The position numbers and the translations under genes are program-made. DNA of 27,598 bases from a virus, in the IMG/VR virus record IMGVR_UViG_3300010368_000080, positions 1-27,598 of that record; one strand, written 5' to 3'. The notes beneath the pieces are model-generated. The model made no database searches. It was not told the DNA's origin and saw nothing but the letters and a program-made list of their open reading frames with translations. This document shows, one piece after another, positions 10,275 to 16,632 of this stretch (position 1 is its first letter; each line of letters opens with the position of its first letter).

Positions 10275-10304
10275 AAAGCCGGTATTTATTTATCGGCTTT
10301 TTTT
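10275..10304 (+). terminator. Rho-independent terminator ending the structural operon
   Basis: A 7-bp stem AAAGCCG (10275-10281) / CGGCTTT (10294-10300) with a 12-base AT-rich loop is followed directly by a T run to 10304. It lies 12 bp after the last tail gene and just before the early promoter, so it separates the late and early units. Confidence 0.9.
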
Positions 10305-10306
10305 CT

Positions 10307-10334
10307 TTGACATATCAAAATAATTGCTTATACT
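10307..10334 (+). promoter_or_regulatory. Sigma70-type early promoter
   Basis: TTGACA at 10307-10312 (a perfect -35) and TATACT at 10329-10334 (one mismatch to TATAAT) are separated by 16 bp. Transcription should begin about 10340-10342. It sits directly after the terminator and ahead of the replication genes, so host RNA polymerase probably uses it first. Confidence 0.85.
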
Positions 10335-10340
10335 TACAAC

Positions 10341-10438
10341 GATGAGACAATTAAATAACAAACATTTAGACACAATAGAGGGAGCATCAGCCCATCAGGG
10401 CGAAATTGTCTCATCCCAATTTGCTCCCTCGTGTCAAA
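10341..10438 (+). ncRNA. Structured 5' leader with interleaved inverted repeats (pseudoknot or switch)
   Basis: Two long complementary pairs cross each other. Helix 1 is GATGAGACAATT (10341-10352) with AATTGTCTCATC (10404-10415), 12 bp perfect. Helix 2 is GAGGGAGCA (10378-10386) with TGCTCCCTC (10422-10430), 9 bp perfect, extended past a 4-base bulge by GACAC (10369-10373) with GTGTC (10431-10435). Between them lies a small hairpin GCCC-atca-GGGC (10390-10401). The left arm of helix 1 starts at the predicted transcription start, and helix 2 ends next to the AAAAGGA that serves the first gene at 10453. The order L1-L2-R1-R2 means either a pseudoknot or two mutually exclusive folds. I match it to no known riboswitch or ribozyme. 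The region is also open in frame with the downstream gene from ATG 10342. Confidence 0.7.
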
Positions 10439-10452
10439 AGGATGAGAATCAA

Positions 10453-10668
10453 ATGAATGAACTTATTTTAAAAGGACTAGGAAAAAGAAAGGTAAGGTCT
10501 ATTTTAAACAAATGGATCAAAGATCAAATTAATGTTTGTCTAGAGTTTAGAAATGGTCGTTTCTCTTTTGATAGTACTATACACTTGGATCAATATGGTG
10601 TAGATGGTTTTGATGAAGATGGTATGCTTGTTGATGAATTATTTAAATTTATTGGCAACAGGATATAG
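10453..10668 (+). CDS. Small early protein, unknown
   Basis: The product from ATG 10453 is 71 aa: a basic N-terminus (LILKGLGKRKVRSILNKWIKDQI) and an acidic C-terminus (YGVDGFDEDGMLVDELFKFIG). AAAAGGA precedes it by about ten bases. The frame extends upstream to ATG 10342, giving a 108-aa alternative that would have to be read from a nearly leaderless transcript. I prefer 10453 because the upstream stretch forms the interleaved repeats and has no Shine-Dalgarno site. As the first gene of the early operon it may act on the host, but nothing shows how. Confidence 0.65.
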   Translation: MNELILKGLGKRKVRSILNKWIKDQINVCLEFRNGRFSFDSTIHLDQYGVDGFDEDGMLVDELFKFIGNRI

Positions 10669-10680
10669 GAGGTAAGTAAG

Positions 10681-10866
10681 ATGAAAATAGTTACCAAAAA
10701 TATGGAGAGAGAACTAATAAAAGCGGTGAATATTATTTCTGACGTTAGAAGTGAAATAACAAAGAGAGAAAAAGCTAATGGTCTTAAAAGACCTATGGGA
10801 AATGTTCTAGGATTCAAATTAGATGCAATATTAGAAGATTTAGACTTTTTGAAGGGAGGTAAGTAA
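10681..10866 (+). CDS. Small early protein, unknown
   Basis: The product is 61 aa, mostly charged helix (ERELIKAVNIISDVRSEITKREKANGLK), ending DAILEDLDFLKGGK. A strong AGGAGG lies eight bases before the ATG, within a leader (AGGTAAGTAAG-ATGAAA) that is repeated almost exactly before the next gene. No family recognised. Confidence 0.7.
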   Translation: MKIVTKNMERELIKAVNIISDVRSEITKREKANGLKRPMGNVLGFKLDAILEDLDFLKGGK

Positions 10867-10867
10867 G

Positions 10868-11110
10868 ATGAAAGAAACAATTATAATAAGCACAAGTGAT
10901 TTATATAATAGTTCAATGGATAGCCTTGTCACTTGCTTGTTGATGGATAAGCATAAAAAAGAAAATTCATATTCTTTTAGTTGGAACATTGAAGGTGGGG
11001 TTGAGGTGGTAGAGCATAGCCTAACAAACATATCAAGGCATAGTGATAATGTAGAACGTGAGCAAGAGTGTTTAAAGTTCAAAATTGATTATAAAGTGAA
11101 TAGGGGATAA
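10868..11110 (+). CDS. Small early protein, unknown
   Basis: The product is 80 aa. Segment 'SDLYNSSMDSLVTCLLMDKHKKENSYSFSWNIEGGVEVVEHS' suggests a mixed alpha/beta fold with two short strands at the end (ECLKFKIDYKV). GGGAGG precedes the ATG at good spacing in the same repeated leader as the gene before. No motif identified. Confidence 0.65.
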   Translation: MKETIIISTSDLYNSSMDSLVTCLLMDKHKKENSYSFSWNIEGGVEVVEHSLTNISRHSDNVEREQECLKFKIDYKVNRG

Positions 11111-11113
11111 GCA

Positions 11114-11452
11114 ATGCAAGACTTGAAAACTAGAATGTTAATTAGTGGTATGAGTTGGGAGTCACAGGAAACTGTGGCTCTCAAAAACATATACGTTCAA
11201 ATTCAATCGTTTTATCAGCACACTGAACTTAACCTCGATGATCTAGGAAAAGCGGAGATTCTTGGCGAATTAAAGGCTTTATCAAGCAAGATAGAGGATT
11301 TAATTGGCTATACTTATAATGAGATGAATAGACTAATCGAAAGAGATTCAAAAATAGATAAAATTTGTATAAGTTGTGAAAGTGATAAAACATATTATTG
11401 CAATACCTGTATGGAGGACATGAATGAACAATATTCGCATAACAGTCAATAA
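11114..11452 (+). CDS. Small early protein with C-terminal zinc ribbon
   Basis: The product is 112 aa. The N-terminal 80 residues are helical, and the C-terminus has C-x2-C (CISC) and C-x2-C (CNTC) pairs ten residues apart, a likely zinc-binding ribbon. It has a GGGGATAAGC leader before the ATG. The message contains a strong GAAA-capped hairpin at 11157-11182, within codons 15-23. Its 3' end overlaps the next gene by 29 bp. Family not recognised; nucleic acid or protein binding is plausible. Confidence 0.65.
   Translation: MQDLKTRMLISGMSWESQETVALKNIYVQIQSFYQHTELNLDDLGKAEILGELKALSSKIEDLIGYTYNEMNRLIERDSKIDKICISCESDKTYYCNTCMEDMNEQYSHNSQ
11157..11182 (+). other. GAAA-tetraloop hairpin inside a coding region
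   Basis: GGGAGTCACAG (11157-11167), loop GAAA, CTGTGGCTCTC (11172-11182) pair over 11 bp, with two G-U pairs (G11158-U11181 and U11162-G11177). A stem this regular with a GNRA loop is unusual inside an AT-rich reading frame and could shape mRNA processing or translation of the gene at 11114. Confidence 0.6.
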
Positions 11453-11612
11453 AGAAGAGTACAATCTTTTAATTGAGGCCATTGATGTCTTTGGAAAGAT
11501 ATGTGCTAATGAACAAAAGAAAGAAGATACTAAAGAATTATTAAAGGATTTAAAAGATGTCAAAAAACAATATGCCATCACAGAAACAAGCGAACCTGGA
11601 ATCTGTGACTAA
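11424..11612 (+). CDS. Small acidic/basic helical protein, unknown
   Basis: The product is 62 aa: a beta strand (NIRITVNKEEYNLLIEAI) and a charged helix (EQKKEDTKELLKDLKDVKKQY). It has an ATGGAGGACATGA context (GGAGG six bases before ATG). It overlaps the upstream gene by 29 bp and the downstream gene by 56 bp; the downstream gene may therefore start later. No family recognised. Confidence 0.6.
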   Translation: MNNIRITVNKEEYNLLIEAIDVFGKICANEQKKEDTKELLKDLKDVKKQYAITETSEPGICD

Positions 11613-11850
11613 TTATGTACCTCACGATATGAGGTATCATGCTGAAATTCAATATGAGGGAGAGGTATCCTTTAGGATGCTCTGTTGTGCTGGTGATTCT
11701 CCATTGTCACTAGCGGCAGATATTCGTAATGAACTCCGCAGAGTCAAAGAACGTCTCCCTCAAATCATTCATGTGGAGGATGTATATAATGAGGAAGATA
11801 TTACAGAAGTTTTTATTGAAGATTTTAACAATGGAGTTTATGATGATTGA
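11557..11850 (+). CDS. Unknown protein
   Basis: The product is 97 aa from ATG 11557. Residues 24-60 (MRYHAEIQYEGEVSFRMLCCAGDSPLSLAADIRNELRRVKERLP) look like strand-strand-helix, and the C-terminus is acidic (EEDITEVFIEDFNNGVYDD). The long 56-bp overlap with the upstream gene raises the chance that translation begins at the ATG at 11572 or 11629 instead. No known motif. Confidence 0.55.
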   Translation: MSKNNMPSQKQANLESVTNYVPHDMRYHAEIQYEGEVSFRMLCCAGDSPLSLAADIRNELRRVKERLPQIIHVEDVYNEEDITEVFIEDFNNGVYDD

Positions 11851-16341: not shown

Positions 16342-16632
16342 ATGAGGCCACATATCAAACCTTGCGAAATGTGCGGAAAGCAAGAAAACGAATACGAAAG
16401 AATGAAATCAGAAAGAGAAATAAAAAAACGAGAAATGATCGCATTCCTTGTAGGTAGAAGATCAGTACATAATTTCAGCAAAAGAGAGAATGAAGTATTC
16501 GATGCTTACTATGATCTGGGCATAAGAGACTTTCAACAAATAGCGGACAATTTTGGAATCAAAGCATATTCAGTAGAAACATACTATGATCGTGCTATGG
16601 ATAAACTTCTACAAATGGAATTTGAATTATGA
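16342..16632 (+). CDS. Sigma-region-4-like transcription regulator
   Basis: The product is 96 aa. Residues 46-90 (FSKRENEVFDAYYDLGIRDFQQIADNFGIKAYSVETYYDRAMDKLL) fit the helix-turn-helix of sigma-70 region 4 or LuxR-type proteins, with 'FQQIADNFGIKAYSVETYYDRA' as the recognition unit. The first residues contain a CEMCG motif (C8, C11), perhaps a zinc site, and a basic linker. Its place two genes before the head-packaging leader makes it a candidate activator of late transcription. ArpU-type late regulators have similar size. Binding site unknown. Confidence 0.6.
   Translation: MRPHIKPCEMCGKQENEYERMKSEREIKKREMIAFLVGRRSVHNFSKRENEVFDAYYDLGIRDFQQIADNFGIKAYSVETYYDRAMDKLLQMEFEL

What the first reader, a model, noticed from the sequence alone, without database searches (positions are those of the whole stretch)
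10341..10438. Interleaved long inverted repeats exactly at the early transcript's 5' end
Two perfect complementary pairs (12 bp, and 9 bp plus 5 bp past a bulge) occur in the crossed order L1-L2-R1-R2, with a small GCCC/GGGC hairpin in the middle. L1 starts at the predicted transcription start of the TTGACA-N16-TATACT promoter, and R2 ends against the AAAAGGA ribosome site of the first early gene. Crossed helices of this length are very unlikely by chance in AT-rich DNA. The element could be a pseudoknot that controls translation, an alternative-helix switch, or a stable small RNA made at high level. I recognise no known family, so this is my best candidate for an undescribed regulatory RNA. 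The reading frame of the first gene is also open through it (ATG 10342), so a leaderless longer protein is the competing explanation.
Basis: partly seen in the sequence, partly recalled or inferred. Interest (0 to 1): 0.78.

Follow-up and report, generated by a model that had tools for sequence, protein, structure and literature searches.

The report
C4-like antisense RNA guarding phage early genes
The crossed repeats at the start of this phage's early transcript look like a small antisense RNA built into the leader, able to pair with the transcript's own start and with the first gene's ribosome site, laid out like the immunity RNAs of phages P1 and P4 but found here in phages without detectable lysogeny genes.

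Summary
B sits in a hairpin loop inside a three-way junction (P1, P2, P3).

Eight relatives keep this element in front of different first genes, with compensatory changes in P1 and P2. Four more (type B) keep the A-B-C plan with different sequence. Fourteen others (type C) have, right after the tail gene, a separate hairpin RNA whose loop and tail pair with the early leader, the promoter lying between. P1 there shows two-sided changes at 8 of 10 pairs.

The order promoter, upstream target, P1/P2/P3 antisense domain, target over the ribosome site, early gene is that of the phage P1 c4 and satellite P4 CI loci, which I checked with scripts. Rfam's C4 model does not match, and no integrase or HTH_3 repressor was found in 20 records.

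Best reading: a divergent or convergent C4/CI-type antisense RNA that shuts early translation, for timing or superinfection exclusion. The nested in-frame leader ORF resembles P4 eta/kil. No RNA data exist.

The parts
10275..10305 (+). Terminator-like hairpin (AAAGCCG...CGGCTTTTTTT) after the tail gene
   Evidence: Sequence. Kept with changed stem sequence in other type A and B loci.
10307..10334 (+). Sigma70-like promoter TTGACA-N16-TATACT; +1 at about 10341
   Evidence: Sequence; same spacing to GATG in 11 type A and B records. Predicted only.
10341..10352 (+). A: 5'-end target (GATGAGACAATT), holding a possible leaderless start codon at 10342
   Evidence: Perfect complement of B; identical in all 9 type A loci; different but still complementary in type B.
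10369..10435 (+). Antisense domain, closed by P1: 10369-10373/10431-10435 and 10378-10386/10422-10430
   Evidence: MFE fold. GACAC/GTGTC here, GATAC/GTATC in the others.
10390..10401 (+). P2 hairpin GCCC-ATCA-GGGC
   Evidence: GCCC/GGGC, GGCT/AGCC and GCTA/TAGC in relatives: two-sided changes at 3 of 4 pairs.
10404..10421 (+). P3 hairpin AATTG-TCTCATCC-CAATT; loop and 5' arm are the antisense segment B (10404-10416)
   Evidence: Fold; stem and loop kept in all 9 type A loci despite indels around them.
10440..10447 (+). C: downstream target GGATGAGA, overlapping the Shine-Dalgarno site of the first gene
   Evidence: 8-nt perfect complement of B; in type B the RBS GGAGATGATA matches its own B by 10 nt.
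10342..10668 (+). Nested in-frame ORF: 108 aa from ATG 10342 (possible leaderless start), 71 aa from ATG 10453
   Evidence: Frame open and in phase in 9/9 type A loci; pN about equal to pS in the leader part.

Best explanation
The element is a C4/P4-CI-type antisense RNA locus at the head of the early operon. The leader transcript starts at A, carries a 67-nt folded antisense domain (P1 enclosing P2 and P3, with B in the P3 loop), and then reaches the ribosome site C of the first gene. B, in cis or as a released small RNA acting on other copies of the transcript, pairs with C and blocks ribosome loading. It also pairs with A, which covers the possible leaderless start codon. Early gene expression would thus be shut down as the RNA accumulates, limiting the early phase and protecting the infected cell against sister phages of the same specificity. 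Pairing capacity, its conservation and the fold are shown by computation. Transcription, processing, trans action and biological purpose are inferred.
For: One segment is complementary to both the 5' end and the RBS, found by scans almost only at this locus. A stem-plus-anti-RBS scan of 1.27 Mb gives 34 hits, all at this locus, against 0-2 in shuffles. Type B keeps the A-B-C plan with different sequence: for A targets -15.6 to -17.0 kcal/mol cognate against -5.2 to -7.3 between types. Type C has the antisense hairpin separated from its target by the early promoter, P1 with two-sided changes at 8/10 pairs and 0/500 shuffles reaching the covariation score, and better cognate than swapped duplexes (permutation p 0.0001). 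The first genes downstream differ while the RNA stays. The same order is annotated in phage P1 (a1, b1, C4, a2, b2, icd) and found in P4. C4 folds as P1 enclosing a tetraloop P2 and a P3 whose 9-nt loop carries b', the topology of the window element.
Against: No RNA or infection data. Rfam C4 gives no match even at E 10. Within type A, the A, B and C segments never vary, so their covariation rests on comparing types. RBS pairing between types A and B is only partly specific (-7.9 to -12.2 against -13 to -18.1). Exact anti-RBS matches are short (4-6 nt) in some type C members. The open frame through the leader needs an extra explanation.
Confidence: 0.72

Rival explanations
1. A purely cis-acting translational switch: the nascent leader first pairs A with B (a pseudoknot with P1), freeing the ribosome site; without A pairing, or after a signal, B occludes C. 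No free small RNA is made.
For: A and C compete for the same B segment in one transcript. B:C is short range in cis.
Against: In type C the antisense hairpin lies before the early promoter, right after the tail gene stop, so it can reach its target in cis only by read-through. The best characterised systems with this layout, P1 C4 and P4 CI, act in trans.
Confidence: 0.18
2. The region encodes the N-terminal part of a leaderless longer protein and the repeats are incidental.
For: Frame open and in phase with the first gene in 9/9 type A loci, with net indels that are multiples of three.
Against: Helices covary while the encoded residues change (AHQG, ALPG, GCLA, ASHS). Between the diverged pairs pN is about equal to pS (0.21-0.23 against 0.24-0.33), unlike the first genes of two pairs (pN 0.14-0.18, pS 0.47-0.53). 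The first genes are unrelated, and in type B the leader ORF is not in phase.
Confidence: 0.06
3. DNA-level operators: three copies of GATGAGA (two direct, one inverted) bind a repressor at the early promoter.
For: The motif is repeated at +1, in the loop and at the RBS.
Against: P1 and P2 conserve pairing rather than sequence. The third copy always falls on the Shine-Dalgarno site. Types B and C keep complementarity with other sequences. No HTH_3 repressor found.
Confidence: 0.04

Closest known systems
C4 antisense RNA of phages P1/P7 (Rfam RF01695)
   Same: Order promoter, upstream target (a1, b1), antisense RNA, downstream target over the RBS (a2, b2), gene. P1 encloses a tetraloop P2 and a P3 with an antisense loop (PMC5320573).
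   Different: No match to the Rfam model. In types A and B one segment serves both targets instead of separate a' and b'. P1 is shorter, the leader far more compact, and no antirepressor or lysogeny genes were recognised.
CI RNA with seqA/seqC of satellite phage P4
   Same: One segment (seqB) complementary to an upstream target near the promoter (seqA) and a downstream one at the kil RBS (seqC) (PMC4825925). An open frame in phase with the first gene runs over the RNA (eta/kil).
   Different: P4 CI acts by premature transcription termination and maintains lysogeny. Here no terminator follows the element and no integrase was found. Spacing A to B is about 50 nt against about 190 nt.
sas RNA of phage P22 (antisense, superinfection exclusion)
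   Same: Phage RNA controlling translation of early-acting genes, linked to exclusion (PMC12197685).
   Different: sas is an asRNA encoded in cis to sieB; here the antisense segment lies on the same strand as its target.

Membership tests
C4 antisense RNA (RF01695) | Match to the Rfam covariance model | tested here: not met
   0 of 22 records at E 10; not among the cmscan hits at E 10 in the window stretch
C4 antisense RNA (RF01695) | P1 stem enclosing P2 and P3, antisense segment in a loop | tested here: met
   Folds of window, L095, L203 and of P1 C4 itself
C4 antisense RNA (RF01695) | Target copies upstream of the RNA and downstream over the RBS, in one transcript | tested here: met
   Triad scan; P1 annotation for comparison; promoters predicted only
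C4 antisense RNA (RF01695) | Two separate antisense segments a' and b' | tested here: not met
   Types A and B use one segment for both targets; type C has both
C4 antisense RNA (RF01695) | RNase P processing at the 5' end of P1 | not testable with these tools
   Type A P1 starts GAYAC, not GG; most type C P1 stems start GG
C4 antisense RNA (RF01695) | Trans action; role in lysogeny and immunity | not testable with these tools
   No integrase, resolvase or HTH_3 repressor in 20 records, but records may be fragments
P4 CI RNA / seqA-seqB-seqC | One RNA segment complementary to seqA (promoter-proximal) and seqC (kil RBS) | tested here: met
   Same plan found in P4 and in the window by script
P4 CI RNA / seqA-seqB-seqC | Premature transcription termination in the leader | not testable with these tools
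   No terminator-like hairpin with U run seen between 10341 and 10453 on reading the sequence
P4 CI RNA / seqA-seqB-seqC | Nested in-frame genes over the RNA (eta/kil) | tested here: met
   Window and all type A loci in phase; P4 checked. Not met in type B.

The most novel reading that the evidence does not exclude
A clade of apparently virulent phages without recognisable lysogeny genes uses swappable antisense-RNA specificity cassettes at the tail/early junction. In some (type C) the antisense RNA is made as the 3' tail of the late operon and shuts early translation, a late-to-early RNA timer and exclusion system that also sorts the phages into incompatible groups.
Probability: 0.35. Interest if true: 0.78.

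Novelty: new variant of a known kind. Interest (0 to 1): 0.62.

Why it matters
C4 and CI RNAs are known as parts of temperate-phage and satellite immunity. The same logic at the early operon of phages with no detected integrase or repressor, in three versions of different sequence at one genomic position, would make antisense immunity a tool of lytic timing and superinfection exclusion as well. It also gives a sequence rule (anti-RBS segment inside a P1 hairpin) that found such loci with few hits in shuffled sequence.

Tried and rejected
Rfam at gathering and permissive thresholds: nothing convincing at the element; the better weak hits are to the upstream terminator. Homologs of the first gene (L001-L006) lack the element. 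Tail protein in INPHARED phages and in GTDB genomes: no match, so the host is unknown. The type C covariance model finds nothing in contigs brought in by the methyltransferase. MAFFT misaligned P3 of type A, so its pairs were counted from an explicit regular-expression parse. P4 was first searched in the wrong stretch, then corrected.

Full report
Observation. The arms and their crossed order are as described. The 12-bp pair is the only one of that length at short spacing in the window, and a 12 x 9 bp crossed arrangement appears in 0.7% of shuffled windows. The promoter TTGACA-N16-TATACT places +1 at about 10341.

The missing third element. The loop sequence TCTCATCC (10409-10416) is complementary to the ribosome site GGATGAGA (10440-10447) as well as to the 5' end GATGAGA. 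The minimum-energy fold is a three-way junction: P1 (10369-10373/10431-10435 plus 10378-10386/10422-10430) enclosing P2 (GCCC-ATCA-GGGC) and P3 (AATTG-TCTCATCC-CAATT). I call the segments A (5' end), B (loop) and C (RBS).

Relatives. A search with the adjacent tail protein gave contigs sharing this genomic junction. Type A (window, L089-L092, L095, and by pattern L203, L273, L274) keeps A, B and C letter for letter while the downstream first gene changes. P2 changes as GCCC/GGGC, GGCT/AGCC and GCTA/TAGC, and the outer P1 as GACAC/GTGTC to GATAC/GTATC. Type B (L099-L102) has A AGATGATAACC, B GGTTATCATCTCC and RBS GGAGATGATA: a different sequence, the same plan. Type C (14 contigs) has, about 20-45 nt after the tail stop codon, a hairpin RNA: P1 of 10 bp, a stem-loop carrying the anti-RBS segment, then a single-stranded segment matching the 5' end of the early transcript, whose promoter lies between. 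Its P1 shows two-sided changes at 8 of 10 pairs, with 0/500 shuffles reaching the covariation score. Cognate antisense-leader duplexes are stronger than swapped ones (-19.9 against -16.2 kcal/mol, permutation p 0.0001; related sequences are not independent, so this p is optimistic).

Specificity of the pattern. Scans for A-B-C triads return this locus plus a few weak hits at about the shuffled rate. The scan for P1 hairpins with an anti-RBS segment gave 34 hits, all at this locus, against 0-2 in shuffles of 1.27 Mb.

Comparison with known systems. Phage P1 is annotated promoter, a1, b1, C4, a2, b2, icd, and C4 RNA folds as P1 enclosing a tetraloop P2 and a P3 with b' in its loop, a' single-stranded. 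In P4 the script recovers TTCACAGG (8651), CCTGTGAA (8463) and TTCACAGG at the kil RBS (8384). PMC4825925 describes P4 CI pairing with seqA and seqC; PMC5320573 describes C4 structure, RNase P processing and occlusion of the RBS. The window element shares layout and fold topology but does not match the Rfam C4 model. Whether it is homologous or convergent cannot be told.

The reading frame. In 9/9 type A loci the frame from ATG 10342 is open and in phase with unrelated first genes, through indels that sum to multiples of three. Yet pN is about equal to pS in this stretch, while the first genes of two pairs show clear purifying selection, and residues encoded by P2 are not kept. P4 offers a precedent: the kil frame is open across CI as part of eta, and eta translation prevents the immunity termination (PMC10111431). 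I infer that translation through the leader, rather than the peptide, may be what is kept. In type B the leader ORF instead ends in TAATG overlapping the first gene's start.

Lifestyle. No tyrosine integrase in 25 of 26 records, no resolvase or HTH_3 repressor in 20; the records may be fragments. Early genes downstream include NinG-like nuclease, DnaD-like loader, exonuclease and methyltransferase. So lysogenic immunity is not the obvious purpose; timing of early expression or exclusion of sister phages is more likely.

What is shown and what is not. Shown: complementarity, fold, covariation of P1 and P2, conservation across different downstream genes, three versions at one locus, architectural match to P1 and P4. 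Inferred: transcription start, release of a small RNA, trans action, repression of translation, biological role. Absence of earlier description was checked only in Rfam 15 and the held open-access papers.

Noticed in passing
window 10668-10686 and 10855-10873: A 19-nt ribosome-site cassette (GGAGGTAAGTAAGATGAAA) is repeated exactly before two early genes, and early genes differ between close relatives: looks like swapping of gene cassettes between repeated leaders.
   Followed up: partly
L097 6751-7110: Two hairpins follow the tail gene. The second carries GTTGTTGTTATCCATA matching the early leader TATGGAAACAACAAC (duplex -27.8 kcal/mol); the first carries only a short anti-RBS match: a' and b' seem split over two RNAs.
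   Followed up: partly
type C loci, e.g. L109 6775-6795, L112 4595-4607: A conserved TTTCTMCCC box (TAAATTTCTCCC) just upstream of the antisense hairpin, possibly a promoter or processing signal of the RNA.
   Followed up: no
type C leaders and type A/B leaders: In nearly all loci the predicted transcript start coincides with ATG or GTG inside the antisense target, suggesting a leaderless mini-ORF at the 5' end.
   Followed up: partly
L107 record (G026) 11398-11787: One tail-protein relative carries a tyrosine integrase; no A-B-C triad was found in L107.
   Followed up: no
window 16342-16632: Small protein with a weak match to phage RNA polymerase sigma factors (phrog_1190), a candidate early/late regulator.
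   Followed up: no
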